Shown here: piece after piece, positions 2,010 through 40,713 of the stretch
Position numbering within the stretch: the stretch's first letter is position 1
Layout of the letters: every line of letters begins with the position of its first letter
Source: Anaerosomatales bacterium
GTDB taxonomy: Bacteria; Actinomycetota; Coriobacteriia; Anaerosomatales; Anaerosomataceae
DNA length: 64,000 nucleotides
Direction of reading: 5' to 3'
Assembly (NCBI GenBank): GCA_030019445.1
Contig: JASEEU010000002.1
Span: 62,995 to 126,994, forward strand
Notes under the pieces: generated by a model
What the model was told of the DNA's origin: nothing
What the model saw: only the letters and a program-made list of their open reading frames with translations
Databases searched by the model: none
Made by a program: the position numbers and the translations under genes

Positions 2010-2033
2010 CCCGCCCTGGTTCACCGGGGCGGG
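2010..2033 (-). terminator. Hairpin overlapping the larC stop codon
   Basis: CCCGCCC at 2010-2016 pairs perfectly with GGGCGGG at 2027-2033, and the larC stop codon lies in the loop. No T-run follows on the minus strand, so this may be a weak or factor-assisted 3' end rather than a classical terminator. The 170-base gap between mutY-like and larC, two genes that converge here, holds nothing else recognisable. Confidence 0.35.
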
Positions 2034-3211
2034 TTCTCGTTTCCGAGCAGCGCGGCCGCCTCGATCTCGAGCGCGCGACGCACGTCGCTCTCGGCATGGC
2101 CGAGTTCGCGCGCGATGCGCGCAACGTCGTCGGACTCGGGACGTACGGCGGGGCCGGGCCCGTCGATCTCGGCGACTTTGAAGCGCACGGTGCCGAGCGA
2201 CGTGGCCAGCTCGATGACCTCGCGCTCGGCCACCACGCGCTCGGCGGGCAGGACGCGCACGCCGAGGCTGCCCGTCTCGGCGATCACTCGTGTCGCGAGC
2301 GCAGCGGCGTCGGTCGAACGCGTAAGCGCCGAGAGCACCACGCCCGGGCGGCCCTTCTTCATGGTGACGGGCGCGAACCACACGTCGAGCGCGCCCGCCG
2401 CACGCAGGCGGTCGGCGGCGTTGGCGAGCTGTTCGCCGCTCAGGTGGTCGATCGTGGTCTCCAGGAGGGTCACCCGCTCGAGCCCGGAGCGTGACGGCTC
2501 CGGCTCCGTGCCGAGGAAGACGCGTGCGATGTTGGGGACGGAGAGCTGGCGCGTGCCGGCACCGTGCCCCACGGCCGTCACCGTCATCTCCGGCAGGTCG
2601 CCGAACGCGTCGGCGAGCGTGGCGACGAGCGCGGCGCCGGTGGGCGTGGTGAGCTCGCCTTCGGCGGGGCCAGCCTCGACGGGCGTCCCGCGCAGCAGCA
2701 GCGCCGTGGCGGGTGCGGGGACCGGCAGGACGCCGTGGGCGGTTCGGACGGTGCCCGAGCCGGTCGCGATCGGCGACGCGACGAGCCGGGTGACGCCGAG
2801 CGCGTGCAGCGCCCAGCAGACGCCGACGACGTCCGCGATGCTGTCGATCGCGCCGACCTCGTGGAAGTGCACGTCGTCGACGGCGGTGCCATGCACGGTG
2901 GCCTCCGCCTCGGCCAGCGCCGTGAACACGGCGAGCGCGCTCGAACGGACGGCCTCGGTGAGCGGAGCGGCTTCGATCGCAGTGCGTATCTCGGCCCAGG
3001 CGCGGTGTGGCTGGTCGTCGATCGCCGAGACGGTCACGTGTGCCCCGGTGATACCGGAACGCGTCACGCGCTCCGTCACGATACCGATGGGGCCGAAGCC
3101 GAGCGCGCCGAGCGCCGCCTCGAGCGCCGAGGCGTCCGCCCCCGCGTCGATGAGCGCGGCGAGGAGCTTGTCGCCCGAGACGCCCGAAGAGCAGTCGACG
3201 TACGCGATCAT
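2021..3211 (-). CDS. larC: LarC, nickel insertion enzyme of nickel-pincer cofactor synthesis
   Basis: The 396-residue protein matches LarC, which cyclometallates pyridinium-3,5-bisthiocarboxylate with nickel, using CTP, to make the nickel-pincer nucleotide of lactate racemase and related enzymes. The N-terminal YVDCSSGVSGDKLLAAL, the VHFHEVGAIDSIADVVG histidine/acid motif and TTPTGAA are characteristic. Unlike many larC genes, which need a programmed frameshift, this is one uninterrupted frame. The start at 3209-3211 overlaps the end of larB by four bases (ATGA), so the two are translationally coupled. LarA and LarE genes are not in the window, so the enzyme using the cofactor cannot be named. 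Confidence 0.92.
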   Translation of the reverse strand: MIAYVDCSSGVSGDKLLAALIDAGADASALEAALGALGFGPIGIVTERVTRSGITGAHVTVSAIDDQPHRAWAEIRTAIEAAPLTEAVRSSALAVFTALAEAEATVHGTAVDDVHFHEVGAIDSIADVVGVCWALHALGVTRLVASPIATGSGTVRTAHGVLPVPAPATALLLRGTPVEAGPAEGELTTPTGAALVATLADAFGDLPEMTVTAVGHGAGTRQLSVPNIARVFLGTEPEPSRSGLERVTLLETTIDHLSGEQLANAADRLRAAGALDVWFAPVTMKKGRPGVVLSALTRSTDAAALATRVIAETGSLGVRVLPAERVVAEREVIELATSLGTVRFKVAEIDGPGPAVRPESDDVARIARELGHAESDVRRALEIEAAALLGNENPPR

Positions 3212-3966
3212 CGCGGTTCGGCCGCCTGGTTGATGCGGCTTGCGAGCGCAGCCGCGCCGAAGCCGTTGTCGATGTTCACCACGCCGATGCCCGAGGCACA
3301 CGAGTTCAGCATGGTGAGCAGCGCCGAGACGCCCCCGAACGAGGCGCCGTAGCCCACCGAGGTCGGCACGGCGACCACTGGGCAGCTCACGAGGCCCGCG
3401 ACGAGGGAGGGCAGCGCGCCCTCCATGCCGGCGACCGCCACGATGACACGGGCGTCGCGCAACACGTCCTGGTGCGCGAGCAGGCGGTGGAGGCCCGCGA
3501 TGCCCACGTCGAACAGGCGCGTGACGCGGTTGCCCATCACCTCGGCCGAGATGGCGGCCTCCTCGGCCACCGGCGTGTCGGCGGTACCCGCCGAGGCGAC
3601 CACGATATGCCCCACGGCCGGCGGATCGGTGCGACGATCGACCACGAGCAGGCGTGCATCCTCGAAGTACCGAGCGTCGTTCGCCACCTGCGCGGCGGCC
3701 TGGTAGTGCGCCGCGGACGCGCGCGTCCCAAGCACCACATCGCCGTGCTCGATCAGCTCGCGCACGATGCCGCGCACCTGCGAGGGCTTCTTGCCCTCGC
3801 AGAACACGACCTCGGCGAAGCCGCAGCGCACCGCGCGATGGTGGTCGAGCTTGGCGTCGCCGATGTCGGTGAAGGGCAGTGTCGAGAGGCGCTCGGCGGC
3901 CTCGGCCACCGTCGTCTCGCCACGCGAAAGCGCCTCAAGGAGCGACCGCAGTTCGTCCGATGTCAT
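3208..3966 (-). CDS. larB: LarB, nicotinic acid adenine dinucleotide carboxylase/hydrolase
   Basis: LarB carries out the first step of nickel-pincer cofactor synthesis: it carboxylates C5 of nicotinic acid adenine dinucleotide and releases AMP. The 252 residues are typical length. The PurE-like C-terminal half is clear from VAVAGMEGALPSLVAGL, the VPTSVGYGASFGG loop and the final INIDNG-like VNIDNGFGAA motif. The N-terminal third carries KLDHHRAVRCGFAEVVFCEGK, the family's conserved segment. The gene is first in a two-gene operon with larC. Its ATG follows a GGAGGAC-like site. No nickel regulator or transporter is adjacent. Confidence 0.92.
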   Translation of the reverse strand: MTSDELRSLLEALSRGETTVAEAAERLSTLPFTDIGDAKLDHHRAVRCGFAEVVFCEGKKPSQVRGIVRELIEHGDVVLGTRASAAHYQAAAQVANDARYFEDARLLVVDRRTDPPAVGHIVVASAGTADTPVAEEAAISAEVMGNRVTRLFDVGIAGLHRLLAHQDVLRDARVIVAVAGMEGALPSLVAGLVSCPVVAVPTSVGYGASFGGVSALLTMLNSCASGIGVVNIDNGFGAAALASRINQAAEPR

Positions 3967-4057: not shown

Positions 4058-5617
4058 GTGACCGAGAAGCGCCTAGGCATCGACAACGCGACGTACGTCA
4101 TCGCCCGGATCGGCGGCGCGGTGACGCTCTTCGCCGTCTATGTCGTCCTCGGCGCGAGCTTCGAGGAAGGTCCCGCCCGGACGCTGTACCTCATCGGCGC
4201 GCTCGTCTGGATCCTCACCACGGTCGTCATCGCGGCGCTGCGACTCACAAGCTTCGAGTGGGACCTGCGTCGGGTGCTGCAGGGCGCGCTGCTGTTCGAC
4301 GCGATCTCGCTCGGCTTGCTCGCCGCCGCGCTCGGCGGTTCGGAGGATCCGTTCTACGCGTGGTTCGTGCTCGAGGCCGTGCTCTACTCGGCGGTGTTCA
4401 GGCAGGCGCGCGCGTGGATGTACTCGGCGGTCCTGCTCGTGGCGTACGTCATCGGCCACCTGCTCGGCTTCGCGACGGTGCCCGAGCCCGCCGTGCTCGT
4501 CTTCGTCATGGGCAAGTCGCTCGGTCTGATCGCGGTGGGCTGGGCGGTGGGCTGGCTCATGGAGGAGCAGGTCGAGGTGCAGACCGAGCTCATGGAGCAC
4601 GGCGAGGAGGTCGCCGGGCTCAACATGCAACTCGCGCGCAGCATCGCTGAGCTCCGGGCCATGGCCGAGATAACCGAGCTCATCCACTCCACGCTCGACC
4701 TCGATACCGTCGGGCCGCTCGTGCTCGAGACGCTGCAGAAGGTCATCGACGTCCCCGCTGCCTGCATCTTCGTGATCGACAAGGTCAAGGCGCAGACGCT
4801 CTTCAGCGCGAGCAAGGGGCTCGAGAGCGGTTCGCAGGCGCGCTACGGCGACATCGACCATGAGACGGGCGACCTCTCCGTGGGCGAGGAGCACTTCGCG
4901 TGCCTCGAGCTGCTCGACCACAACCAGATGCTCGTCGTCTTCTGTGCCGAGGCGCAGCAGATCGATGCGCTCGACAACGAGGACCGCATGGTCCTGCAGA
5001 CGGTCGCCTCGGAGCTCGTGGTGGCGGTGGAGAACTCCCGCCTGTACAAGCTCACGCGGCGCCTCGCCATCACCGATGAGCTCACCGACCTCTACAACTA
5101 CCGCTATCTCCAGCAGCGGCTCGACGACGAGGTCGGCCGCGCAAAACGCTACGGCAAGCAGCTATCGCTGCTCATGCTCGACGTGGACGACTTCAAGGTC
5201 GTCAACGACACCCACGGTCACCTTGCGGGCGACGCCGTGCTCGCCGAGCTCGGCACCGTCATGAAGTCGGTCGTCCGTGAGGTCGACGTCGTCGCGCGCT
5301 ACGGCGGCGAGGAGTTCTCGGTCATGCTGCCCGAGACCGACGCGTCGGGCGCGTTCATCGTGGCCGAGAAGATCCGCGAGGCGGTCTCCATCCATCGCTT
5401 CCCCGACGAGGACGGCGATCGCCGCGTGCACGTCACGGTGAGCATCGGGCTGGCGAACATGCCGGTGCATGCCGAGGACAAGGAGTCGTTGCTGCGGGCC
5501 GCGGACGATGCGCTCTATCAGGCGAAGAACACCGGCAAGGACCGGGTACGGGCGCCGCGCGTGAACCTCGGCACGCTCGACTCGACATCCACCGACGGCG
5601 AGGAGGCCGGGTCATGA
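4058..5617 (+). CDS. Membrane-bound GAF-GGDEF diguanylate cyclase
   Basis: This 519-residue protein is predicted to make c-di-GMP at the inner face of the membrane. About six hydrophobic helices occupy residues 15-168, followed by a coiled coil (170-205), a GAF-like sensor (about 205-325) and a GGDEF domain (about 337-500). The active-site loop is GGEEF at 416-420, fully compatible with activity. An RxxD inhibitory site (Arg407-Asp410) lies five residues upstream, so product inhibition is expected. GTG at 4058 is chosen because AAGGA sits seven bases upstream and the first membrane helix follows directly. The stop overlaps the pheA start by four bases (ATGA), an odd coupling of signalling and phenylalanine synthesis. 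Confidence 0.9.
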   Translation: MTEKRLGIDNATYVIARIGGAVTLFAVYVVLGASFEEGPARTLYLIGALVWILTTVVIAALRLTSFEWDLRRVLQGALLFDAISLGLLAAALGGSEDPFYAWFVLEAVLYSAVFRQARAWMYSAVLLVAYVIGHLLGFATVPEPAVLVFVMGKSLGLIAVGWAVGWLMEEQVEVQTELMEHGEEVAGLNMQLARSIAELRAMAEITELIHSTLDLDTVGPLVLETLQKVIDVPAACIFVIDKVKAQTLFSASKGLESGSQARYGDIDHETGDLSVGEEHFACLELLDHNQMLVVFCAEAQQIDALDNEDRMVLQTVASELVVAVENSRLYKLTRRLAITDELTDLYNYRYLQQRLDDEVGRAKRYGKQLSLLMLDVDDFKVVNDTHGHLAGDAVLAELGTVMKSVVREVDVVARYGGEEFSVMLPETDASGAFIVAEKIREAVSIHRFPDEDGDRRVHVTVSIGLANMPVHAEDKESLLRAADDALYQAKNTGKDRVRAPRVNLGTLDSTSTDGEEAGS

Positions 5618-6435
5618 CCCGATGCGCGTTCCTGGGACCGGCCGGCACGTTCACCGAGGAAGCGCTGCTCTCCCTCGACATCGAGGGGTGCGAGCCGCTT
5701 GCGTGCGCGTCGATCGAGGACGTGTTCGCCGCTGCAGCCGACGGGCGTGCAGACCACGGTCTCGTCCCCATCGAGAACAGCGTTGAGGGGAGCGTCAATG
5801 CGACGCTCGACGCGCTCGCGTTCGACTCCGAGCTGCTCATCCAGCGCGAGGTCGTGCGCGACATCCACCACGTGCTCATCGTGGCGCCGGGCGTCACGAT
5901 CGAGGATGTCACCGCCGTGGCCAGCCATCCGCAGGCGACCGCGCAGTGCCGGCGGTGGCTCGCCGAGAACCTGCCCGGGCGCCCGGTGCTTGCGGCGAAC
6001 TCGACCGCCGAGGCGGCGCAGCGCGCCGTGGCCGAGCCGGGCGTCGCGGCGGTGGGGACCGCGCTCGCGGCCGAGCTGCACGGCGGGCACATCCTGCGCG
6101 CGTCGATCGAGGACTCCGAGCGCAACCAGACGCGCTTCGTGCTTCTCGGCAGGGAAAGCCAGCCGCGGACGGGGCATGACAAGACGTCGCTCGCGCTCTT
6201 CTTGTACGAGGACAAGCCCGGCGCGCTGCTCATGATCCTCTCGGAGTTCGCGTACGGGCAGATCAACCTCACCAAGATCCAGTCACGACCCACCAAGCGC
6301 GCGCTCGGCGAGTACATGTTCTACGTGGACCTCGAGGGCCACCTCGAGGACGAGGCCGTGGCGCTCGCCCTCGAGTGCCTGCGCCTCAAGCTGCGCAGGG
6401 TCAAGGTGCTCGGCAGCTACCCCAACGCGCGGTAG
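5614..6435 (+). CDS. pheA: Prephenate dehydratase
   Basis: Monofunctional prephenate dehydratase (273 residues) converts prephenate to phenylpyruvate in phenylalanine synthesis. The catalytic domain spans about 1-180, with the N-terminal FLGPAGTFTEEA, the VPIENSVEGSVN motif and the catalytic TRF motif at 173-175. A C-terminal ACT domain (about 192-265) should bind phenylalanine for feedback control. The allosteric motif usually written ESRP reads QSRP here (223-226). There is no chorismate mutase domain. Translation is coupled to the upstream diguanylate cyclase by a four-base overlap. Confidence 0.95.
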   Translation: MTRCAFLGPAGTFTEEALLSLDIEGCEPLACASIEDVFAAAADGRADHGLVPIENSVEGSVNATLDALAFDSELLIQREVVRDIHHVLIVAPGVTIEDVTAVASHPQATAQCRRWLAENLPGRPVLAANSTAEAAQRAVAEPGVAAVGTALAAELHGGHILRASIEDSERNQTRFVLLGRESQPRTGHDKTSLALFLYEDKPGALLMILSEFAYGQINLTKIQSRPTKRALGEYMFYVDLEGHLEDEAVALALECLRLKLRRVKVLGSYPNAR

Positions 6436-6532: not shown

Positions 6533-6572
6533 AGTTATAACTAATCGGCATAGGTCGCATTAGAGATGCCGA
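6533..6572 (+). promoter_or_regulatory. Palindrome and inverted repeat before the cluster-protein operon
   Basis: AGTTATAACT at 6533-6542 is a perfect 10-base palindrome in an otherwise GC-rich stretch and could hold a -10 element. It is followed by TCGGCAT at 6545-6551 and its reverse complement ATGCCGA at 6566-6572, with a 14-base spacer. The pair ends six bases before the GGGAGG ribosome-binding site of the GTG-initiated gene at 6589, so it may be an operator or a leader hairpin. Function is inferred from position only. Confidence 0.45.
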
Positions 6573-6588
6573 ATACAGGGAGGCCGTC

Positions 6589-7875
6589 GTGTCGGACACC
6601 GTCGAGACCGTGGACTACACCGAGATGTGGGAGGGGCTCGGTCTGAACGTGCCGGCCCACTGCGCGTTGCTCAAGGCCATCGGACCCGCGTACGAATCCG
6701 TCTACCTCTCGCAGGAGAACCGCCCCGAGGGCATGGGCTACTTCGACTTCGTCATGAGCGAGATCCACGGCCTGCGTATCCAGGAGTTGCAGGACCACAA
6801 GGCCGACGGCGGCACGGTGATCGGGACGTTCTGCGTCTACGTGCCCGAGGAGATCATCCGCGCGCTCGGCGGGCAGTCCATCGGGCTCTGCGCCGGCGCC
6901 GAGTGGGCGTTCCCGGAAGTGGAGCAGGTGCTGCCGAGGAACACCTGTGCGCTCATCAAGAGCTTCATGGGATTCAAACTCGGGAAGGTGTGCCCGTACA
7001 TCGAGAGCGCGGACCTGGTGGTGGGCGAGACCACCTGCGACGGCAAGAAGAAGGCGTACGAGGTGCTCGGCGAGCTGCACAACACGCACGTCATGGAACT
7101 CCCGCAGATGAAGCGGCCGGAGGACCGGGCGCTGTGGCGGGCCGAGATCGACCGGCTCGTGGCGGAGCTTGAGCGACTGTCCGGCCGTACGCTGCAGGCC
7201 GATGCGCTCACGGCCGCCATCACGGAGGTCAACGACAAGCGGCGCGCGCTGCAGCGCCTGAACGCCGCTCGCGCCGCCGCGGCAGCGCCGATCTCAGGCA
7301 AGGACGCGCTCCTTGCGGTGCAGGTCGCGTTCTACGACGACGTCCCGCGCCTCACCCAGATGGTGAACGCGATCGCCGATGAGCTCGAGGCGCGCATCGA
7401 GGCGGGCGTGTCCGTGGCGCCGGCCGACGCCAAGCGCATCCTCATCACCGGCTCGCCCATGGCGATCCCCAACTGGAAGGTGCACCACATCGTGGAGAGC
7501 GCCGGCGGCGTGGTCGTCGCGGAGGAGCTGTGCACCGGCTCGCGCTACTACGACACGCTCGTGCCCGAGGACGGCGGGACCATCGAGGAGATGCTCGACG
7601 CGATCACCGACAAGTACCTCGGCGTGAACTGCGCCTGCTTCACCCCCAACGAGGCGCGCGTGGACGACATCGTGCGCATGGCCGAGGAGTACGGGGCCGA
7701 CGGCGTCATCCACTACGCGCTGCAGTTCTGCGGTCCCTACCAGTTCGAGGGGTTCACGGTGGAGAAGGCGCTGCGCGAGGCGGGCATCCCCGTGCTGAAG
7801 ATCGAGACCGACTACTCCATGGAAGACGCCGGCCAGCTGTCCACTCGCGTCGAGGCGTTCCTGGAGATGCTCTAG
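6589..7875 (+). CDS. Double-cubane cluster protein, 2-hydroxyacyl-CoA dehydratase D-component family
   Basis: This 428-residue protein belongs to the HgdB/FldC/YjiM superfamily of Fe-S reductases. Ten cysteines are present (25, 82, 101, 120, 135, 150, 315, 348, 350, 381), including the GKVCPYIESADLVVGETTCDGKKK-type segment around 135-150, EELCTGSRYYD at 315 and LQFCGPYQ at 381, which match the cluster-binding cysteines of this family. Only one dehydratase-like subunit is encoded, next to one activator ATPase. That is the arrangement of the double-cubane [8Fe-9S] protein and its reductase rather than of the two-subunit CoA dehydratases. The natural substrate is unknown. The start is GTG at 6589 behind GGGAGG; four bases separate it from the activator gene. 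Confidence 0.8.
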   Translation: MSDTVETVDYTEMWEGLGLNVPAHCALLKAIGPAYESVYLSQENRPEGMGYFDFVMSEIHGLRIQELQDHKADGGTVIGTFCVYVPEEIIRALGGQSIGLCAGAEWAFPEVEQVLPRNTCALIKSFMGFKLGKVCPYIESADLVVGETTCDGKKKAYEVLGELHNTHVMELPQMKRPEDRALWRAEIDRLVAELERLSGRTLQADALTAAITEVNDKRRALQRLNAARAAAAAPISGKDALLAVQVAFYDDVPRLTQMVNAIADELEARIEAGVSVAPADAKRILITGSPMAIPNWKVHHIVESAGGVVVAEELCTGSRYYDTLVPEDGGTIEEMLDAITDKYLGVNCACFTPNEARVDDIVRMAEEYGADGVIHYALQFCGPYQFEGFTVEKALREAGIPVLKIETDYSMEDAGQLSTRVEAFLEML

Positions 7876-7878
7876 CCG

Positions 7879-8622
7879 ATGCGGGTCCTCGGCCTCGATA
7901 TCGGCTCCCGGACCGTCGACGCTGTCTGGCTCGAGGACGGCCGCGTCGTGGACTGGGCGGTCGCCGACTCGGGCTTCGACCCCGGGTCGGCGGCGGCGGT
8001 GCTCGTCGATCGCGGCGCCCATGACCTCCTCGTGTCCACCGGATACGGGCGTCACGCGGCGCGCGAACGCTTCGGCGGGTCGGTCGTCACGGAGATCACC
8101 GCGTACGGGAGGGGCGCCTCGGCGCTCTTCCCCGACGCGCGCGCCGTGCTCGATATCGGCGGGCAGGACACCAAGGTGATCGCCCTCGGCGAGCAGGGTC
8201 GCGTGGCGGACTTCGAGATGAACGACAAGTGCGCCGCCGGCACCGGCAAGTTCCTCGAAGTGATGGCGCGCGCGCTCGGCTACGGGCTCTCCGAGATGGC
8301 CGAGGCGGCGCTCGCCGCGGACAGGGGGGTCGCGATCTCCAGCATGTGCACCGTCTTCGCGGAAAGCGAGGTGACCGGCCTCGTGCATCGCGGCGAGGAC
8401 CGGGCGAGGATCGCGCGTGGGCTGCACGACGCGATCGCCACCCGGACGCTCGGCTCGCTCAAGCGCATCGCCGCTGGGGGGCCGCTCGTCTTCGCGGGCG
8501 GCGTGGCGCGCAACCCGGCGATGGTCGCGCTCGTCACTGGTGGTTTCGAAGGCGACGTGCTCGTTCCGGCTGAGGCGCAGATCGTGGGGGCGTACGGCGC
8601 CGCTCTGAGCGTGGAGGACTGA
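7879..8622 (+). CDS. HgdC/YjiL-type ATP-dependent activator (reductase of the cluster protein)
   Basis: This 247-residue ASKHA-fold ATPase is expected to bind one [4Fe-4S] cluster between two subunits and to push low-potential electrons into its partner on ATP hydrolysis. The cluster cysteines are Cys118 in DKCAAGTGKF and Cys157 in SSMCTVFAESE. The nucleotide-binding motifs are GLDIGSRT at 5-12, LDIGGQDTK at 91-99 and FAGGVARNP near 220. It lies three bases after the cluster-protein gene and is certainly cotranscribed. An electron donor (ferredoxin or flavodoxin) is not encoded nearby. Confidence 0.9.
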   Translation: MRVLGLDIGSRTVDAVWLEDGRVVDWAVADSGFDPGSAAAVLVDRGAHDLLVSTGYGRHAARERFGGSVVTEITAYGRGASALFPDARAVLDIGGQDTKVIALGEQGRVADFEMNDKCAAGTGKFLEVMARALGYGLSEMAEAALAADRGVAISSMCTVFAESEVTGLVHRGEDRARIARGLHDAIATRTLGSLKRIAAGGPLVFAGGVARNPAMVALVTGGFEGDVLVPAEAQIVGAYGAALSVED

Positions 8623-8670: not shown

Positions 8671-8689
8671 TGGCCGCGAGGCGGTGACC

Positions 8690-9442
8690 ATGGCCGAGTA
8701 CACGCTGGACCTGCACAATCACACGCCGCTCATCCCGGGCGACTATCGCGGGCGTCTCGACACGACGCCAGCCGAGATCGTGCGCGCGGCGCTCGACGCC
8801 GGGATCGACGTGCTCGGCGTGACCGATCACTTCTCGGCGGCCTACGCACCGCGCATCGTGCAGGCGGCCGATGATGTCTGGCGCGAGGAGGGTCGGCGGC
8901 TCCACATCATCCCCGGAGCCGAGATCAAGATCCGGCGTGACGGCGACGAGGCGCACCTGATCGCGCTCTTCGCGGCCGGGAGTGCGGAGCGCCGTCTCAG
9001 CGCGCTGCTCGCGGTCCTGGGATTGCCGGATCCGGCCGCACCCCTTGAGGGGCTGCCGGCGCTTAGCGTCAGCTACGACCCGCTTGTCGCGGCGCGCGCC
9101 ATCGACACCCTCGGCGGGCTGTGCATCGTCGGGCATGCCGACCGCACCTTCGGCGAGTACCGCCTGAGCGAGTCGCCGCTCGTAGGCGAGCTGATGGCAT
9201 CGCCGCACGTCTCGGCCATCGAGATGATCGACCACGCGTGCCTCGGCACGCTGCCGGGCGGCAGCGACGTCGCGTGCGTGCAGTCCTCCGACGCGCACGC
9301 GCCCGGGGAGATGGGCCGCCGCACGACGCGGCTCTCGATGAGCGAGCCGACGCTCGAAGGGCTGCGCGACGCGCTCAAGCGCGCCCGGCGTCCGCGCGTG
9401 CAGGCGCGTACCGCGGGGGACGCCGCGGCCGTCATACGGTGA
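8690..9442 (+). CDS. PHP-domain metal-dependent phosphoesterase
   Basis: The 250-residue protein is a stand-alone PHP domain. The metal-binding motifs are all visible: HNH near the start (His9, His11), TDHF around residue 45, a His in GHAD and DAH near the C-terminus. Such proteins hydrolyse phosphate esters or nucleotides with two or three metal ions; several act on small nucleotides, but no substrate can be read from this sequence. ATG at 8690 is preferred to GTG at 8684 because CGAGG lies seven bases before it. The gene converges on the phosphoglycerate mutase gene with an 11-base overlap of coding ends. Confidence 0.8.
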   Translation: MAEYTLDLHNHTPLIPGDYRGRLDTTPAEIVRAALDAGIDVLGVTDHFSAAYAPRIVQAADDVWREEGRRLHIIPGAEIKIRRDGDEAHLIALFAAGSAERRLSALLAVLGLPDPAAPLEGLPALSVSYDPLVAARAIDTLGGLCIVGHADRTFGEYRLSESPLVGELMASPHVSAIEMIDHACLGTLPGGSDVACVQSSDAHAPGEMGRRTTRLSMSEPTLEGLRDALKRARRPRVQARTAGDAAAVIR

Positions 9443-33158: not shown

Positions 33159-33235
33159 TGGCGCGCCCTGAGAGATTCGAACTCCCGACCTTCTGATTCG
33201 TAGTCAGACGCTCTATCCGGCTGAGCTAAGGGCGC
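33159..33235 (-). tRNA. tRNA-Arg(ACG)
   Basis: A complete cloverleaf with encoded CCA (33159-33161). The acceptor stem is GCGCCCT/AGGGCGC with G as discriminator, the D-arm is AGCTCAGCCGGATAGAGC, and the anticodon stem-loop CTGACTACGAATCAG shows anticodon ACG. The T-arm has the usual GTTCGAATC. A34 of this anticodon is the substrate of TadA, whose gene lies 370 bases away. Confidence 0.96.
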
Positions 33236-33285
33236 GTCCCAAAATGGGCTTGGTAATCCTGCCAGGTGGCAGGCGTAATGTCAAA

Positions 33286-33380
33286 TGGCGGAGAGTGAGG
33301 GATTCGAACCCTCGAAGGGGCTTTATAACCCCTTACTCGCTTAGCAGGCGAGCGCCTTCGACCGACTCGGCCAACTCTCC
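33286..33380 (-). tRNA. tRNA-Ser(GCT)
   Basis: A long-variable-arm serine tRNA with encoded CCA (33286-33288). The acceptor is GGAGAGT/ACTCTCC with G73, and the anticodon loop reads CTGCTAA within the stem CTCGC/GCGAG. The variable arm is AAGGGGTTATAAAGCCCCTT. It reads AGC/AGT (AGY) serine codons. Confidence 0.96.
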
Positions 33381-33414
33381 GCGCCGTGCGTCCGCCGGGG
33401 CGAAACGCCGCATC

Positions 33415-33443
33415 ATTGTAGCAGGGAGCATGCCGAGCGTGAA
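33415..33443 (-). promoter_or_regulatory. Promoter of tRNA-Ser(GCT)
   Basis: Read on the minus strand, TTCACG (33438-33443) and TACAAT (33415-33420) are separated by 17 bases. The -10 element ends 34 bases before the mature 5' end of the tRNA. The upstream tRNA-Ser(TGA) therefore need not be cotranscribed. Confidence 0.55.
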
Positions 33444-33468
33444 CCACGATGCGCGGGGGGAGCGCGGA

Positions 33469-33556
33469 TGGCGGAGGGGGTGGGATTCGAACCCACGAGC
33501 CCTTGCGGGCTACCGGTTTTCAAGACCGGGGCAATCAACCGCTCTGCCACCCCTCC
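33469..33556 (-). tRNA. tRNA-Ser(TGA)
   Basis: A serine tRNA with CCA encoded at 33469-33471. The acceptor is GGAGGGG/CCCCTCC with G73, the anticodon loop is CTTGAAA within CCGGT/ACCGG, and the variable arm is built on AGCCCGCAAGGGCT. It reads TCA and related TCN codons. A TACACT element at 33589-33594 (minus strand) is a possible -10. Confidence 0.96.
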
Positions 33557-33605
33557 GCACGGATGGCGATGCCGCTCAGGCAGCCTGTAGTGTAGCATCG
33601 AGGCC

Positions 33606-34070
33606 ATGGAGCCGGACACGACGTACATGGCGTTGGCGCTGGAAGAGGCGCGCGCCGCTGCCGGGGAGGGCGAGGTGCCCATCGGCGCGGTCGTCGTCTG
33701 CGAAGGCGCCGTGGTCGCGCGGGCGCACAACCGCCGCGAGTCCGACTTCGACCCCACCGCGCACGCGGAGCTGCTCGCCATCCGCGAGGCCGCCCGACGC
33801 CTCGGCAGATGGCGTCTCTCGGACTGCACGGTGTACGTCACGCTCGAGCCGTGCCCGATGTGCGCCGGCGCGATGCACCAGGCGCGGATCGAGCGGCTCG
33901 TCTACGGCGCCACCGACCCCAAGGCGGGCGCGGTCGGCACGCTCTACGACCTCAGCAACGATGAACGCTTGAACCACCGCTTCAGCTACACGGCCGGCGT
34001 CCTGGCCGAGGAGAGCGCGGCCCTGCTGCGCGACTTCTTCGGCAGGCTCCGCCGGACGGGGGACCACTGA
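33606..34070 (+). CDS. tadA: tRNA-specific adenosine deaminase TadA
   Basis: The 154-residue zinc deaminase converts A34 to inosine in tRNA-Arg(ACG). The zinc site and catalytic Glu are HAE (53-55) and PCPMC (Cys83, Cys86), with the family's FFGRLR end. The window also encodes its tRNA-Arg(ACG) substrate on the opposite strand nearby. The first ATG has a short GAGG spacing; ATG 33627 is a possible alternative. The DUF2207 gene follows after 13 bases. Confidence 0.94.
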   Translation: MEPDTTYMALALEEARAAAGEGEVPIGAVVVCEGAVVARAHNRRESDFDPTAHAELLAIREAARRLGRWRLSDCTVYVTLEPCPMCAGAMHQARIERLVYGATDPKAGAVGTLYDLSNDERLNHRFSYTAGVLAEESAALLRDFFGRLRRTGDH

Positions 34071-34083
34071 CAGGAGGAGCGCC

Positions 34084-35937
34084 ATGCGTGGGTACCGGGT
34101 CTTCGCCGTAGCCGTCTTCCTCACGCTCGTCGCGGGGGTGATCGCCGTTCCCGGCGTCGCGCTCGCCAAGTCCTACTCGGTCACGGCGGTGGACATCGAG
34201 GCCGAGGTCCAGCCGGACGGGACCCTCGTGGTGACCGAGCGGCGGACGTTCGACTTCGACGGCGACTACACGTTCGCCTTCTGGGAGCTCGACGTCGCGG
34301 ACTCGCAGGGCATCGAGGTGCTCGGCATGTCCGGCCCGGACGGGCCGCACACGTTCACCGACGACGCGGCCGCCTGGGACACGCGGCCGCCCGGCACGTA
34401 CCAGGTCACCGACTTCGGCACCTATCTGGATGCCCGCGTCTTCTTCCGGGAAGCGGACACGGAAGCCACGTTCACGCTCGAGTACCGCGTCTTCGGTGCC
34501 GCCAAGCGCTGGCAGGACACCGGCGAGCTCTACTGGAAGTTCATCGGCGACCGGTGGGAGATCCCGGCCGAGAACGTACGCATCCATATCACCGTGCCCG
34601 GCGCGACGGCACAAGACGTCCGGGCGTGGGCGCACGGTCCGCTCACCGGGCTCGTCACCATCAACGACGACGGCACCGTGACCCTCACGCTCGACCGGCT
34701 GCCCTCCTACACGTTCGTGGAAGCGCGGCTGCTCTTCCCCGCGACGCTGCTCCCTCAGGCGCCCACCATCCCGCAGGAGCGTGTCCAGGTGGTGCTGGAT
34801 GAGGAAGCCGAATGGGCCGAGGAGGCCAACGCCGAGCGCACGGCCGCGCGGCTCAAACTCTGGGGGAGCATCGCCGTCGTCGTGCTGCTCTCGCTCGGCG
34901 CGCTGGCGGCGACCATCATCAACTTCCTCCGGCATGGCAAGGAGTACAAGCCGCAGTTCGCGGGCGACTACTTCCGGGAGCTGCCGGACGAGACGCTCTC
35001 GCCGGCGCACGTGAGCTCGCTCATGTCGATGGGCCAGCCGTCCAACGAGGCGGTGAGCGCGACCCTCATGGACCTCATCGACCGCGGTGTCCTCGGCATC
35101 GAGCGCATCCTGACCGAGAAGAACGGGTTTCTCGGCATCGGTGCCAAGACCGAAGAGCAGTACCGGCTGACGCTCCGGCGGGAGCGCCTGGGCGACAACG
35201 TCCGCCGGCACGAGCGCGAGCTGATCGACCTGCTGTTCGCCGAGACGATGGGGGCGGACCAGTTCACGTTCGAGGAGCTCAAGGACCAGCTCAAGAGCCG
35301 CACGGACGCGGACCACTACCTCAAGAGCATCCAGGCGTGGAAGAAGCAGGTCTACGACGGCGTGAAGGGCCAGGGGCTCATCGAGAAGGGCGGCGACGCC
35401 CGCTCGGGCGGCTTCGTCGCGCTCGGCGTGCTCGTGGGAGGCTCGGGCTTCCTGCCGCTCGTCATCGCCGAGTTCGGTTGGCTGCTGATCCTGACGGTGC
35501 CGATCGGCATCGTCGTGGCCGTGCTCGGCGCGGGCATGGCCCGCCGCAGCCGTGAAGGCGCTGAGCTGGCCGCCAAGTACGAGGCGCTTCGCAACTACCT
35601 GCGTGACTTCGGGCGACTGCACGAGAAGCCGCCGCAGTCCGTCATCCTGTGGCGCCACTTCCTCGTGCTTGCCGTGGTCTTCGGCATCGCGGAGCAGGTC
35701 ATCGACGCGATGCGGACCCGGGTGCCGGAGGTCGCCAACGATGCGCACCTGGGCACGATGGCGTGGATGTACGCGGCTGACAGCCACGGCGTGACGCCGG
35801 CGAGCGCGCTCTCCTCGGGCATGGCCTCGGTCGCGAGCGTCGCGTCCAGCCACAGCTCGTCCTCCTCGGGCGGCGGAGGCGGCTTCTCGGGAGGCGGCGG
35901 CGGTGGTGGTGGCGGTGGCGGCGGCGGCGCCGGATAG
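34084..35937 (+). CDS. DUF2207-family membrane protein with glycine-rich tail
   Basis: The 617-residue protein has a signal peptide (1-28, ending ALAK), an extracytoplasmic beta-rich DUF2207 domain (about 30-245), a membrane helix near 260-280, a cytoplasmic helical domain (about 300-440), and further helices near 446-485 and 520-540. The C-terminus is Ser-rich, then an almost pure glycine tract that includes a run of 13 Gly. Function of the family is unknown; such low-complexity tails are common in DUF2207 proteins. AGGAGGAG precedes the ATG. Confidence 0.82.
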   Translation: MRGYRVFAVAVFLTLVAGVIAVPGVALAKSYSVTAVDIEAEVQPDGTLVVTERRTFDFDGDYTFAFWELDVADSQGIEVLGMSGPDGPHTFTDDAAAWDTRPPGTYQVTDFGTYLDARVFFREADTEATFTLEYRVFGAAKRWQDTGELYWKFIGDRWEIPAENVRIHITVPGATAQDVRAWAHGPLTGLVTINDDGTVTLTLDRLPSYTFVEARLLFPATLLPQAPTIPQERVQVVLDEEAEWAEEANAERTAARLKLWGSIAVVVLLSLGALAATIINFLRHGKEYKPQFAGDYFRELPDETLSPAHVSSLMSMGQPSNEAVSATLMDLIDRGVLGIERILTEKNGFLGIGAKTEEQYRLTLRRERLGDNVRRHERELIDLLFAETMGADQFTFEELKDQLKSRTDADHYLKSIQAWKKQVYDGVKGQGLIEKGGDARSGGFVALGVLVGGSGFLPLVIAEFGWLLILTVPIGIVVAVLGAGMARRSREGAELAAKYEALRNYLRDFGRLHEKPPQSVILWRHFLVLAVVFGIAEQVIDAMRTRVPEVANDAHLGTMAWMYAADSHGVTPASALSSGMASVASVASSHSSSSSGGGGGFSGGGGGGGGGGGGGAG

Positions 35938-36075
35938 CCGTACGTCGCGGCGTTGTGACCGCTCCTACCCGTCACGACCGGCATAATCGGTATCATGAAA
36001 GGACTGTACGGTTCTCTGCCGAATGCCGATAGTGCCTCCATGAAGCGTCCGCAGACGATGACCGAGGGGTGACCG

Positions 36076-36561
36076 ATGAGGACGACCCTGCGAACCGCGA
36101 CCCTCGCCGCCGTTCTGACGCTGGCGGTGCCCGCGTCGGCGTACGCGGTCGACGGTGGTGGCGATGTCCCGACGGCCCTCTCGACCGGCGCGGGCATCGT
36201 GGCGCTCCTGCTCGCCGCCGGCTTGCTCGTGCAGATGCTCTCGCTGCGCAAGCTGGCCGAGGGCGCTGCCATCGCCGACAACATCACCTACGCCGTGCTG
36301 GCGATCATCTGTCTTGCCGCCGGCGTCTTGGTCGGCTGGGTGGCCGACCTGCTGCCGACGGGCTTCTCGGCGGAGCAAGCCCGTCTCGGCGCCGATCTTC
36401 TGACGATCGCGTCGCTCGTCCTCTTCGGCGTGTACTTCTACCGGGTCCGGAGAGCGATGGCCAGGTTTCTGAGCGTGCTGACCGGAGCCCAGCAGGATCT
36501 CGTGGCCGCGCTCGACGCGGACAAGGACCTGCCTGCGACCAGCGGGGACGAGCGTGTCTAA
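36076..36561 (+). CDS. Small membrane protein of the histidine-kinase cluster
   Basis: The 161-residue protein starts with a signal-peptide-like segment (MRTTLRTATLAAVLTLAVPASAYA) followed by three hydrophobic helices at about 35-58, 70-98 and 110-128 and a short charged tail. No family is recognised. It is the first of three genes: it overlaps the next by eight bases, and the kinase follows. A role in membrane sensing for that kinase is an inference from the operon. Confidence 0.6.
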   Translation: MRTTLRTATLAAVLTLAVPASAYAVDGGGDVPTALSTGAGIVALLLAAGLLVQMLSLRKLAEGAAIADNITYAVLAIICLAAGVLVGWVADLLPTGFSAEQARLGADLLTIASLVLFGVYFYRVRRAMARFLSVLTGAQQDLVAALDADKDLPATSGDERV

Positions 36562-36784
36562 CCTGCTCGCACAGCGCATAGAAGAAGTGCTCCGTCCCAT
36601 CGTCGGGACGGTGTTGGCGTCTGTCTCCGTCGACCTCGAGAGCAAGCGCATCGGCAAGGATCCGGAGTCCATCACACGGTTCGACCTGCCCGACATCGCG
36701 CAGAATCTCTCACAGCAACTGAAGCTCGTGGTCGGACCCGACCTGGCCGAGGCCGCGGCCGACAAGGTTCGGGAATTGGCGTGA
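36554..36784 (+). CDS. 76-residue hypothetical protein of the histidine-kinase cluster
   Basis: A small soluble protein of unknown family that starts at GTG 36554, inside the preceding gene. The pattern LAQRIEEVLRPIVGTVLASVSVDLESKRIG followed by LPDIAQNLSQQLKLVVGPDLAEAAADKV suggests two helices around a short strand. The eight-base overlap with the membrane protein and the 13-base gap to the kinase support a shared function. Confidence 0.55.
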   Translation: MSNLLAQRIEEVLRPIVGTVLASVSVDLESKRIGKDPESITRFDLPDIAQNLSQQLKLVVGPDLAEAAADKVRELA

Positions 36785-36797
36785 CGGGAGGGGAGCG

Positions 36798-38840
36798 GTG
36801 AGCGAAGCATCAGGGACGCCTGATCCGCAGCCGCTCGAACGACTGCTCGCGGAGAGCGAGCGCTGGCTGATGCGGCGCGTGCTCCACTACGCCAAGGAAC
36901 AGGGCTACGCGCGCTACACGTCCACGCTCGAGGAGCCCTGGCGCGTCTCGATCGCCGGCCTGACCGCGTCGCTCGTCCAGCTCATCGACGAGCGCGGCAT
37001 CGAGATCGGCATGGCGTGCGAAGAGGACGTGTGCGCCGATCCGGCGAGCCGCTTCGGCATCGCGGAGGCGCGCTCACACCGGGCGCGCGGCGTGGGCCTT
37101 GGGATGTTCCTCGGCCTCATCAAGTACTACCGCACCGCGTACGAGGACCTCGTCTGGGAGCGGGTCGACGATCGGGCGACCGCGTGGTCGTACTGCGGCG
37201 CGATCGCGCGCTTCTTCGACCGGGTCGAGATCGCGTTCGTGAGCGAGTGGGCCGGTCTCGGCGAATCGGACGCGGTCGCCGAGCTGCAGGAGCGCAATCG
37301 CCACATGACCAACGAGAAGAACAAGTACCTCACCATCTTCGAATCCCTGAGCGAGCCCGCCGTGCTGTTCGGTCCCGACTGCCTGCTGGAGAACGTCAAC
37401 GAGACCGCTGCGCGCCTGTTCAGCCTCGGCGAAGAGATCAGCGGCTCGGCGTACTACTCGGGCTCGGTGGCCGGCAACATCTTCGAACCGCTCGCCGCGG
37501 ATGTCGCGGCGTTCACCGAGGGGCGCCTCCGCGAGCAGACGGTGGAGCGCACGCTCGACACCGTCTCGGGGCCACGTCACTTCATCGTGCGACTGAAGCG
37601 GATGCTGGACGTGAGCGGGAAGTTCCACGGCACCATCGCCGTGCTCTCCGACGTGACCGAGCGCAAGCAGGCCGAGGAGACCGCGCTCCGGCTGAGCGCC
37701 CGCTACCGGTCGATCTTCTCCAGCATGCTCGATGCCGTCGCCCACCACGAGGTGATCCGCGACGCGACGGGCGCCATCGTGGACTACCGCTTCCTCGACG
37801 TGAACGACGCGTTCGAGGAGTTGACGGGCATGGCGGCCTCCGAGGTGGTCGGTCGCACGGCGACCGAGGTCTTCCCGACCATGGCCGAGGAGGACGCGGA
37901 ATGGATCGCCTCGTTCGCGCGCGTCGTGGACGAGGACACCGCCGTGTGGTTCGAGCGCGAGTTCGGACCGCTCGGCCGCACGTACAGCGTCCGCGCGTAC
38001 CGGTCGGGGCCGGAGCGCTTCGGCGTCGTGTTCACCGACGTGACGGGCGTGCGGGAGGCGACGCGACAGCTGCAGGACGAGGTGGCCGAGCATGCCGAGC
38101 AGCTCGAGCGCCTCGTCGCCGAGCTCGAGCAGGCCAACCGCGTGAAGGACGCGTTCATGGCGAGCATGAGCCACGAGCTCCGCACGCCGCTCAACTCGGT
38201 GCTCGGCTTCTCGGGCATCCTCCTCGATGAGCTCGCCGGGCCGCTCAACGACGAGCAGCGCCGGCAGCTCGGCATGATCCGCTCGGCGGGACAACGCCTG
38301 CTCGGTCTGGTGAACGACCTGCTTGACCTCTCGCGCATAGAGTCGGGGCGGGTGGACGTGGCGGTGACCGAGTTCGACCTCGTTCATGTCGCCGAGGAGG
38401 TCGTCGAGAGCATGCGCCCGCTCGCCGACGCCAAGGGCCTCCAGATGGCGGTCATCGGCCGCGAGACCCTCGTGCCGATGTGGAACGACGAGGAGAAGAT
38501 CGCCCAGGTGCTGATCAACCTCGTCTCGAACGCCATCAAGTTCACCAACGACGGAGCGGTCGACGTGGAGCCGACGGTCAGCCGCGACGGCCTGTGGGCG
38601 ATGGTCCGCGTGACCGACACGGGTCGCGGCATCGCGTCGAGCGAGATGGACTCGGTCTTCCAGCGGTTCTCGCGCGCCAAGCTCGATCGGCCCGCCGAGG
38701 ACGGCGCCGGCCTGGGACTCGCCATCTCCAAACGACTGGCCGAGCTCTGTGGAGGCACGCTGCTCGTGGAGAGCGCGCTCGGCAGAGGGTCGACGTTCAC
38801 CCTGAAGGTGCCGGTCCGCCACCGCGAGGCGCGCCTGTAG
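36798..38840 (+). CDS. Soluble PAS-PAS sensor histidine kinase
   Basis: The 680-residue kinase has an all-helical N-terminal domain of unknown type (about 10-155), two PAS domains (about 175-290 and 300-420), a coiled coil (420-450), a HisKA dimerisation domain with phospho-acceptor His459 in MSHELRTPLNS, and a HATPase domain (about 560-677; N box LINLVSNAIKF, G boxes DTGRGI and GAGLGLAI). There are no membrane helices. Its response regulator is probably the receiver-GGDEF protein at 39024-39980, which lies just beyond tRNA-Ser(GGA). GGGAGGGGAGC precedes the GTG start. Confidence 0.9.
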   Translation: MSEASGTPDPQPLERLLAESERWLMRRVLHYAKEQGYARYTSTLEEPWRVSIAGLTASLVQLIDERGIEIGMACEEDVCADPASRFGIAEARSHRARGVGLGMFLGLIKYYRTAYEDLVWERVDDRATAWSYCGAIARFFDRVEIAFVSEWAGLGESDAVAELQERNRHMTNEKNKYLTIFESLSEPAVLFGPDCLLENVNETAARLFSLGEEISGSAYYSGSVAGNIFEPLAADVAAFTEGRLREQTVERTLDTVSGPRHFIVRLKRMLDVSGKFHGTIAVLSDVTERKQAEETALRLSARYRSIFSSMLDAVAHHEVIRDATGAIVDYRFLDVNDAFEELTGMAASEVVGRTATEVFPTMAEEDAEWIASFARVVDEDTAVWFEREFGPLGRTYSVRAYRSGPERFGVVFTDVTGVREATRQLQDEVAEHAEQLERLVAELEQANRVKDAFMASMSHELRTPLNSVLGFSGILLDELAGPLNDEQRRQLGMIRSAGQRLLGLVNDLLDLSRIESGRVDVAVTEFDLVHVAEEVVESMRPLADAKGLQMAVIGRETLVPMWNDEEKIAQVLINLVSNAIKFTNDGAVDVEPTVSRDGLWAMVRVTDTGRGIASSEMDSVFQRFSRAKLDRPAEDGAGLGLAISKRLAELCGGTLLVESALGRGSTFTLKVPVRHREARL

Positions 38841-38844
38841 CGCG

Positions 38845-38873
38845 TTGCCCGCCCCCGTCATCCCCGCTATACT
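38845..38873 (+). promoter_or_regulatory. Promoter of tRNA-Ser(GGA)
   Basis: TTGCCC (38845-38850), a 17-base spacer and TATACT (38868-38873), in the context GCTATACTCGC. The tRNA-Ser(CGA) gene has the same boxes with the same spacing. The tRNA begins 44 bases after the -10 box. Confidence 0.62.
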
Positions 38874-38885
38874 CGCGGTTGCGTC

Positions 38886-38903
38886 TGACGCCTCCCGGCG
38901 TCA
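38886..38903 (+). other. Leader hairpin between promoter and tRNA-Ser(GGA)
   Basis: TGACGCC (38886-38892) and GGCGTCA (38897-38903) form a perfect 7-base stem with loop TCCC, between the -10 box and the mature tRNA. It may guide 5' leader processing. Confidence 0.35.
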
Positions 38904-38916
38904 TGGTGTGACGCGC

Positions 38917-39010
38917 GGAGAGCTGCCCGAGTGGTTGAAGGGGCACGACTGGAAATCGTGTGTGCCGGCTTGAACCGGTACCCAGGGTTCGAATCCCTGG
39001 CTCTCCGCCA
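38917..39010 (+). tRNA. tRNA-Ser(GGA)
   Basis: A serine tRNA with encoded CCA. The acceptor is GGAGAGC/GCTCTCC with G73, the anticodon loop is CTGGAAA within ACGA/TCGT pairs, a long variable arm follows (TGTGCCGGCTTGAACCGGTA), and the T-loop is GTTCGAATC. It decodes TCC and TCT. Confidence 0.96.
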
Positions 39011-39023
39011 GCTCACACCCCTG

Positions 39024-39980: not shown

Positions 39981-40165
39981 TGCGCCACCTCCCCAGGCCG
40001 AGTGGATCGTGTGTGCAAGGCGCCCGGTCCTGAGCGAACCTTGCTATCGGGTAGATTCGACATGCGGAGCCCGTGACCTGCAACTCCTCGCGGCCCTGCA
40101 TCCGCCTGGCGCGGAGGTTGCAGGCAGCCCGGCGACTGCTCGCATTTCCCGCCGAGAGGATCCTC

Positions 40166-40579
40166 GTGCGCTCGCTCTACCGCTGGATGCTCGTCGTGGT
40201 CGGTTCGCTGTCTCTTGCAGCGGGCATCATCGGCATGCTCGTGCCGATGTGGCCCACCACGCCGTTCCTGTTGCTTGCCGCCGCCTGCTACGTTCGCAGC
40301 TCCGAGCGGCTCTACGGCTGGCTCATCGAGCACCGGCACCTCGGTCCGTACATCCAGGACTTCCGGACCGGACGCGGCATCCCCTTGCGTGTGAAGGTCA
40401 TCGTCCTCGGGCTCATGTGGACCACCACCGTGATGTCTTCGGTGATGATGGTGAGCTCGCGCGAGGCCGATCCCTTCGCCCTGGCCTACGCATTCGTCGT
40501 CATGGCCGCGGCGGTGGGCGTGCAATACTACGTGGGCTTCAGGATCCCGACGCGTGTCGTGGAGGAAGAGGCCGAGTAG
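40166..40579 (+). CDS. DUF454/YbaN-family inner membrane protein
   Basis: The 137-residue protein matches the YbaN family: MVVVGSLSLAAGIIGMLVPMWPTTPFLLLAAACYVRSSERLY with the conserved LPxxPTTPF motif, LIEHRHLGPYIQDF and two C-terminal helices. Function is unknown. GTG at 40166, with GAGAGGA five bases upstream, is preferred to the ATG at 40073. The 185-base gap to the divergent regulator gene holds an imperfect inverted repeat (CTGCAAC at 40078, GTTGCAG at 40117). Confidence 0.82.
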   Translation: MRSLYRWMLVVVGSLSLAAGIIGMLVPMWPTTPFLLLAAACYVRSSERLYGWLIEHRHLGPYIQDFRTGRGIPLRVKVIVLGLMWTTTVMSSVMMVSSREADPFALAYAFVVMAAAVGVQYYVGFRIPTRVVEEEAE

Positions 40580-40639
40580 GGAAGCGCGGACCGGTACGCA
40601 CCGCCGAGTGTGGGCCGAACCGGGCTCGCCGCGCGTGCG

Positions 40640-40668
40640 TTGCCCCGGCCCCGCGCCCTCGCTATACT
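40640..40668 (+). promoter_or_regulatory. Promoter of tRNA-Ser(CGA)
   Basis: TTGCCC (40640-40645) and TATACT (40663-40668) with a 17-base spacer and the extended GCTATACTCGC, matching the tRNA-Ser(GGA) promoter. The tRNA begins 46 bases after the -10 box. Confidence 0.62.
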
Positions 40669-40713
40669 CGCACGTGCGCTCTCAGCGGCCTCCGGGTCGC
40701 CGGCAGCCACCAC

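What the first reader, a model, noticed from the sequence alone, without database searches (positions are those of the whole stretch)
6533..8622. Candidate double-cubane cluster protein with dedicated activator
Seen: one HgdB-like protein with ten cysteines and one HgdC-like ATPase, four bases apart, with no second dehydratase subunit, CoA transferase or acyl-CoA dehydrogenase nearby. Known: the YjiM/YjiL-type pair forms an [8Fe-9S] double-cubane protein that reduces small molecules with ATP-driven electrons. Inference: this operon encodes such a low-potential reductase whose physiological substrate is unknown. The neighbours (pheA, PHP phosphoesterase) do not reveal it.
Basis: partly seen in the sequence, partly recalled or inferred. 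Interest (0 to 1): 0.7.

Follow-up and report, generated by a model that had tools for sequence, protein, structure and literature searches.

The report
Double-cubane reductase pair, selenium-linked family
Two adjacent genes in an anaerobic actinobacterium encode a known type of ATP-driven iron-sulfur reductase whose natural job has never been shown, and comparing many genomes suggests that its family helps cells supply selenium (or sulfur).

Summary
Window 6589-7875 (428 aa) and 7879-8622 (247 aa) encode a double-cubane-cluster protein (DCCP) and its activator ATPase. NCBIfam's DCCP equivalog scores 488 bits (cut-off 350). The best solved structures are C. hydrogenoformans DCCP. All six cysteines that bind the [8Fe-9S] cluster in BzdN align and are invariant in 130 of 130 DCCP rows. 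The genome holds one HGD-D gene, so no second subunit. This is a new member of a known kind. Local neighbours are bystanders: in relatives pheA and the PHP gene adjoin without the pair. Relatives point to selenium. Among 296 genomes of the class, 113 of 118 with DCCP have SelD, against 90 of 178 without; dehydratase paralogues show no such link. In one close relative (L016, 69% identical) the pair lies inside the selenocysteine operon. The window's genome has its own selenocysteine operon elsewhere. A provisional DCCP-selenium link is already in print. Inside the window's own order the link has no statistical power, so selenium as this member's role is inferred, and the substrate is unproven.

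The parts
6578..6583 (+). ribosome-binding-like GGGAGG before the GTG start
   Evidence: read in the sequence
6589..7875 (+). double-cubane-cluster protein (DCCP, long type, 428 aa); predicted [8Fe-9S] ligands C82, C120, C150, C315, C348, C381; further invariant C101, C135
   Evidence: NF040772 488.3 bits over a cut-off of 350; phmmer to 7yyl/6eno E about 1e-137; cysteine map; tree
7879..8622 (+). activator ATPase / DCCP reductase (247 aa), HgdC/BadF type; C118 and C157 match HgdC C127 and C166; DIGS 7, DIGG 92
   Evidence: TIGR00241 207 bits over 125.4; solved relatives MbdQ, 7yyl_E DCCP reductase and HgdC; cysteine positions
5614..6435 (+). context only: prephenate dehydratase PheA, upstream bystander
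   Evidence: PDT and ACT domains; adjoins the PHP gene directly in relatives without DCCP at this site
8684..9442 (+). context only: PHP-domain phosphoesterase, downstream bystander
   Evidence: PHP_C over its cut-off, PHP just under; follows pheA directly in G057, G075, G045, G010

Best explanation
The operon encodes a homodimeric double-cubane-cluster protein and its dimeric [4Fe-4S] ATPase. The ATPase takes an electron from a reduced carrier such as ferredoxin, hydrolyses ATP, and pushes the electron at very low potential onto the [8Fe-9S] cluster, where a small substrate is reduced (mechanism carried over from the C. hydrogenoformans pair; not shown here). I propose that the physiological job of this family, and most likely of this member, is chalcogen supply. 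It would reduce an oxidised or alkylated selenium compound (selenite, elemental Se or a diselenide, or an R-Se-CH3 compound) to selenide, the substrate of SelD, with the sulfur equivalent in genomes that lack SelD. Shown here: family identity, cluster ligands, lack of a second subunit, co-occurrence with SelD, and relatives with the pair inside or beside Sec operons. Inferred: that this member does the same, and the exact substrate. My estimates: DCCP identity 0.95; role in Se or S supply 0.6; specifically selenide production 0.35.
For: Identity. Selenium: (1) class-wide, SelD is over cut-off in 113 of 118 DCCP genomes against 90 of 178 without DCCP (p = 1e-18); at 95% completeness or more, 96 of 97 against 61 of 134; genus level 48 genera with both, 0 with DCCP alone. 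(2) It holds inside families f18, f19 and f22, and inside genus g52 (26 with both, 0 DCCP only, 1 SelD only, 10 neither). (3) Specificity: 33 genomes with only sub-cut-off relatives of the model have SelD in 15 of 33, like genomes with neither (75 of 145). (4) Other phyla: SelD in 46 of 50 DCCP genomes sent, chosen from the 80 fetched. (5) A second class (Dehalococcoidia by the title of L043): 16 of 17 against 117 of 180, p = 0.014. (6) Of 14 control genomes, E. coli and M. jannaschii alone hold DCCP and alone hold SelD over cut-off. (7) Place: of 72 genomes with both genes in the printed tables, DCCP lies within 10 kb of SelD in 20; about 0.7 expected if placed at random. 18 of 80 fetched DCCP loci carry selA, selB, selD, yedF or yedE. 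(8) L016, 69% identical and in the window's clade, reads selD(TGA)-dccp-activator-yedF-selA. (9) The window's genome has selD (in-frame TGA), the yedF C-terminal half, selA, selB and tRNA-Sec.
Against: In the window's own order SelD is nearly universal (60 of 69), and DCCP presence is independent of it (27/4 against 33/5, p = 1); in its family many SelD genomes lack DCCP. So DCCP is at most an accessory to selenium use there. No selenium gene lies in the 64 kb window; the Sec operon is 217 kb away. DCCP does not co-occur positively with the putative Se transporter YedE in the order (11 of 31 against 21 of 38), and the window's genome lacks YedE. A few DCCP genomes lack SelD: G300, G305, G327, G332 of 50 and 5 of 118 in the class, four of them 73-86% complete. 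G327 (locus L056) is a 2.1 Mb record titled as a chromosome, so a real exception. SelD also marks an anaerobic lifestyle, and genomes are not independent. E. coli yjiM-yjiL has no annotated selenium gene in the 20 kb read.
Confidence: 0.6

Rival explanations
1. Sulfur, not selenium: the pair reduces a sulfur compound (sulfur, polysulfide, or a C-S bond, as the nitrogenase-like MarHDK does) to sulfide for cysteine, Fe-S and thiouridine synthesis, and its company with SelD reflects shared chalcogen chemistry.
For: In L006 the pair stands between cysK, with metY beyond it, and mnmA-nifU-nifS-Rrf2; cysK and Rrf2 clusters recur at L004, L054, L057, L064. The L064 genome has DCCP but no SelD.
Against: Selenium genes are near in 18 of 80 loci and SelD co-occurrence is strong and specific, which a pure sulfur role would not predict.
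Confidence: 0.2
2. A broad or detoxifying reductase of small molecules (acetylene, azide, hydrazine and similar) with no tie to selenium.
For: C. hydrogenoformans DCCP reduces such molecules (passages of PMC11971306 and PMC7306483). DCCP is patchy inside the window's family (15 of 27), as expected of an accessory.
Against: Does not explain SelD co-occurrence or Sec-operon location. [quoted passage not shown]
Confidence: 0.15
3. A subunit of a 2-hydroxyacyl-CoA dehydratase or benzoyl-CoA reductase.
For: Same superfamily: PF06050, and weak hits to HadC, BzdN and BcrC models.
Against: Those models are far under cut-off (112/700, 87/454, 62/421 bits). No second HGD-D gene in the genome. HadC and MbdN lack the equivalents of C82 and C315. 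Tree placement.
Confidence: 0.02
4. A function tied to its neighbours, aromatic amino-acid synthesis (PheA) or the PHP phosphoesterase.
For: PheA-DCCP-activator-PHP order is kept in L002, L009, L012, L017, and in L009 activator and PHP reading frames overlap by 4 bases.
Against: pheA and PHP adjoin within about 10 bases without DCCP in G057, G075, G045 and in G010, whose DCCP is on another contig. In G055 and G071 DCCP follows pheA with no PHP match in the genome.
Confidence: 0.03

Closest known systems
Carboxydothermus hydrogenoformans DCCP and DCCP reductase (PDB 6eno, 7yyl, 7yzm, 7yzq)
   Same: 51% identical over 419 aligned positions, same length class with the N-terminal extension, all six cluster cysteines and the two further invariant ones (C95, C129 there), adjacent activator
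   Different: Different host and chromosomal place (between pheA and PHP); the activator is no closer to 7yyl_E than to MbdQ or HgdC by score (155, 160, 151 bits)
E. coli YjiM/YjiL
   Same: Single HGD-D protein plus activator; all eight invariant cysteines; host also has SelD
   Different: Short type, 39% identical over 380 positions, in a separate clade
Class I benzoyl-CoA reductase BzdNO
   Same: BzdN holds an [8Fe-9S] cluster with the same six cysteines (PMC11971306 passages)
   Different: BzdN is one of two unlike subunits acting on CoA esters; 26% identical to the window protein
2-hydroxyisocaproyl-CoA dehydratase HadBC
   Same: Fold family and HgdC-type activator
   Different: HadC lacks the equivalents of C82 and C315, two subunits; no second subunit here

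Membership tests
double-cubane-cluster protein (NCBIfam NF040772) | score over the curated equivalog cut-off | tested here: met
   488.3 bits against 350
double-cubane-cluster protein (NCBIfam NF040772) | six cysteines that bind the [8Fe-9S] cluster (positions from BzdN, Cys36/73/100/263/293/327, PMC11971306) | tested here: met
   C82, C120, C150, C315, C348, C381; invariant in 130 of 130 DCCP rows
double-cubane-cluster protein (NCBIfam NF040772) | single subunit type, no dehydratase partner | tested here: met
   1 PF06050 match in the genome, 97.6% complete
double-cubane-cluster protein (NCBIfam NF040772) | adjacent activator ATPase with the two cluster cysteines and phosphate motifs | tested here: met
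   TIGR00241 207 bits; C118, C157, DIGS, DIGG; alignment to HgdC
double-cubane-cluster protein (NCBIfam NF040772) | groups with solved DCCP apart from dehydratase and benzoyl-CoA reductase subunits | tested here: met
   FastTree, 127 tips, three outgroup chains only; FldBC, HgdAB and BcrABCD were not in the tree
double-cubane-cluster protein (NCBIfam NF040772) | bound [8Fe-9S] cluster, ATP-driven reduction of acetylene | not testable with these tools
   needs anaerobic purification
two-subunit 2-hydroxyacyl-CoA dehydratase / class I benzoyl-CoA reductase | two unlike HGD-D subunits | tested here: not met
   one HGD-D gene in the genome
two-subunit 2-hydroxyacyl-CoA dehydratase / class I benzoyl-CoA reductase | score over the HadC, BzdN or BcrC model cut-off | tested here: not met
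   112/700, 87.1/453.8, 62.3/421.15 bits
selenium-utilisation accessory gene | found with SelD across genomes | tested here: met
   for the family:
selenium-utilisation accessory gene | found with SelD within the window's own order | tested here: inconclusive
   SelD nearly universal there; 27/4 against 33/5, p = 1
selenium-utilisation accessory gene | located by selenium genes in the window itself | tested here: not met
   no hit to SelA, SelB, SelD, YedF, YedE in 64 kb

The most novel reading that the evidence does not exclude
DCCP is an ATP-powered, nitrogenase-like chalcogen reductase. It makes selenide (or sulfide) from an oxidised or methylated precursor at its [8Fe-9S] cluster, perhaps with the bridging chalcogenide itself as the exchangeable site, and hands it to YedF and SelD. 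That would give the double-cubane protein its missing physiological role.
Probability: 0.3. Interest if true: 0.85.

Novelty: new member of a known kind. Interest (0 to 1): 0.5.

Why it matters
The double-cubane protein is one of very few enzymes with a nitrogenase-like eight-iron cluster, and a 2025 paper still calls its biological function unknown (PMC11971306, passages). The co-occurrence with SelD, the paralogue control and the selD-dccp-activator-yedF-selA operon turn that open question into a concrete test: remove the gene and measure selenium use. Selenium supply before SelD is itself poorly understood.

Tried and rejected
Two-subunit dehydratase: rejected. PheA/PHP partnership: rejected as a shared function, because the pair is a cassette between them. 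YedE as a second selenium marker within the order: no association, if anything negative (11 of 31 against 21 of 38, p = 0.15); outside the order the raw association (p = 0.006) vanishes among SelD genomes (p = 0.84). The one nearly complete class genome with DCCP but no SelD (G156) was followed: its contig starts 8.3 kb after the place that holds SelD in its sister G183, so an assembly gap is likely but not proven. The M. maripaludis selenium study (PMC11097638, passages) does not mention a dehydratase or cubane protein in its main text. A 2026 selenoproteome review (PMC13188914, passages) does not either. Structure prediction was not run: a relative 51% identical is already solved.

Full report
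What is there. Two genes on the + strand form an operon: GTG 6589-7875 (428 aa) with GGGAGG at 6578-6583, then ATG 7879-8622 (247 aa), three bases apart. The first is HGD-D by Pfam (412 bits) and over cut-off for the NCBIfam equivalog 'double-cubane-cluster-containing anaerobic reductase' (488.3 bits, cut-off 350). Models of HadC, BzdN and BcrC stay far under theirs. The second is an acyl-CoA dehydratase activase (TIGR00241, 207 bits). By phmmer it scores 160 bits to MbdQ, 155 to the DCCP reductase 7yyl_E and 151 to HgdC, so the activator alone would not tell which kind of partner it serves.

Test of family. In PDB sequences the first protein matches C. hydrogenoformans DCCP at E about 1e-137, and BzdN, HadC and MbdN at 1e-22 to 1e-19; identities on one alignment are 51, 26, 24 and 25%. 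The six [8Fe-9S] ligands of BzdN, as printed in PMC11971306 (passages read), align with C82, C120, C150, C315, C348 and C381. All six, plus C101 and C135, are cysteine in 130 of 130 DCCP rows; C350 is Cys in 88 and C25 in 12. HadC and MbdN lack the equivalents of C82 and C315. In a FastTree tree of 127 tips, rooted on the three non-DCCP chains, the window lies in the long-DCCP clade with C. hydrogenoformans DCCP. E. coli YjiM falls in a separate short-DCCP clade. The genome has one HGD-D gene in all. The activator carries C118 and C157, which match HgdC C127 and C166 (positions counted on the alignment; their role as [4Fe-4S] ligands is recalled), and DIGS and DIGG motifs.

Local context. The order LarC-LarB-GGDEF-PheA-DCCP-activator-PHP-PGM recurs in L002, L009, L012 and L017. 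In G057, G075 and G045, which have no DCCP match, and in G010, whose DCCP is on another contig, the PHP match begins or ends within about 10 bases of the PheA match. The DCCP pair is therefore a cassette set between two linked housekeeping-type genes, and those neighbours say nothing about its substrate.

Selenium, genome scale. In 296 genomes of the class, 118 have DCCP over cut-off and 203 have SelD over cut-off. The two-by-two table (both, DCCP only, SelD only, neither) is 113, 5, 90, 88 (p = 1e-18). At 95% completeness or more it is 96, 1, 61, 73. Counting genera it is 48, 0, 37, 30. The link holds at 95% completeness or more inside families f18 (25, 1, 18, 24), f19 (26, 0, 14, 28) and f22 (27, 0, 6, 18), and within genus g52 (26, 0, 1, 10). 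Of 8 genera that have DCCP and are mixed for SelD (genomes at least 90% complete), 7 show DCCP only in SelD members; the eighth holds the exception G156, whose contig begins 8.3 kb past the place of SelD in its sister. As a control for lifestyle, 33 genomes have only sub-cut-off relatives of the DCCP model (dehydratase-like paralogues). SelD is in 15 of 33, not different from genomes with neither (75 of 145), and DCCP against paralogue gives p = 2e-10. Outside the class, SelD is over cut-off in 46 of 50 DCCP genomes (50 of the 80 fetched were sent, mostly other phyla). In the class of L043 it is in 16 of 17 DCCP genomes against 117 of 180 others, p = 0.014. Of 14 control genomes the same two, E. 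coli and M. jannaschii, have DCCP and have SelD over cut-off. Genomes are related, so these p-values overstate independence.

Selenium, gene neighbourhood. Of 80 fetched DCCP loci (flanks up to 8 kb, many cut by contig ends), 18 carry at least one of selA, selB, selD, yedF, yedE (identities of these genes). Of 72 class genomes for which both positions were printed, DCCP lies within 10 kb of SelD in 20, and about 0.7 is expected for random placing. Within the window's order that is 1 of 25. That one, G137, is by position and size very probably the genome of locus L016 (inference from coordinates). L016 reads selD (in-frame stop at the Sec place), 84 bases, DCCP, activator, yedF C-terminal half, selA, all on one strand (SelD family; TGA count for G137). 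Its DCCP is 69% identical to the window's and falls in the same 13-tip clade. L014, also in that clade, has yedF downstream. The sister group of the window's 23-tip clade is the long DCCP of the tandem loci of genus-g52 type.

The host. The window's genome has a full selenocysteine operon 217 kb away: selD with one in-frame TGA, yedF C-terminal half (TIGR03527, 133.5 bits over 110), selA, selB and tRNA-Sec. selB was read from its translation. No selenium gene lies in the 64 kb window, and YedE is absent from the genome.

Against. In the window's own order DCCP and SelD are independent because SelD is nearly universal (27, 4, 33, 5). YedE shows no positive link. Some DCCP genomes lack SelD, among them G327, the genome of L056, a record titled as a chromosome. 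In L006 the pair sits between cysK and mnmA-nifU-nifS-Rrf2, with metY beyond cysK, and cysK and Rrf2 clusters recur by DCCP at L004, L054, L057 and L064. The L064 genome has no SelD. A sulfur or general chalcogen role is therefore a live rival.

What is known. PMC11971306 (passages read) states that DCCP reduces acetylene, hydrazine and azide, that physiological relevance is unclear, and that its biological function is unknown. PMC7306483 (passages) reports DCCP genes 4.5- to 5.5-fold down under CO. A 2023 preprint, PMC10418091 (passages), calls DCCP 'provisionally linked to selenium metabolism'. Lin 2015, PMC5322559 (abstract, section 9 part 1 and passages), lists a 2-hydroxyglutaryl-CoA dehydratase subunit and an activase beside YedF, SelD and LysR in its STRING table, but does not take them up among its four candidates. 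The primary DCCP papers (PMC5866592, PMC9351452) are not held and are recalled only. The selenium link is thus not new. I found no co-occurrence test or paralogue control for DCCP in the papers listed by the searches; open-licence papers only were searched, and I read passages of a few of them, not all.

How it probably works. By analogy with the solved pair: a reduced carrier loads the activator's [4Fe-4S] cluster, ATP-driven changes of the activator pass low-potential electrons to the [8Fe-9S] cluster, and a small molecule is reduced there. I take reduction of a selenium (or sulfur) compound to selenide (or sulfide) as the most likely use. The electron donor, substrate and even the presence of the cluster in this member are untested.

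Verdict. It is an ordinary member of a known family in sequence terms. The interest lies in the family's unsettled function, which comparative evidence now makes testable.

Noticed in passing
L058 10099, L070 10702, L080 10026, L079 5695, L063 3235; tandem loci L089, L096, L097, L100-L102, L104, L105, L107, L108: A long-type DCCP and a short YjiM-type DCCP stand side by side, in the tandem loci with one activator in the fetched stretch, which suggests a two-type (hetero) DCCP assembly. The window genome has only the long type.
   Followed up: partly
L006 4813-13196; also L004, L054, L057, L064: DCCP beside cysteine and sulfur-trafficking genes: at L006 cysK, metY, mnmA, nifU, nifS and an Rrf2 regulator; at the others cysK and Rrf2 clusters.
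   Followed up: partly
L008, L013, L014: DCCP genes of the window's clade with no activator found beside them; the fetched contig is short in L008 and L014.
   Followed up: no
L056 (genome G327): A record titled as a chromosome, 2.1 Mb, with DCCP but no SelD: a natural test case for a selenium-free role.
   Followed up: no
window 33159-40806: Four tRNA-Ser genes (gct, tga, gga, cga) and a tRNA-Arg within 7.7 kb.
   Followed up: no
window 2021-3966: larC (nickel insertion protein) and a larB-like AIR carboxylase-domain gene on the - strand, in conserved order with GGDEF and pheA in relatives.
   Followed up: no
L112 9658-16018 (G000 contig 16): Compact Sec operon with selD reading one in-frame TGA, yedF reduced to its C-terminal half, selA, selB and tRNA-Sec.
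   Followed up: yes
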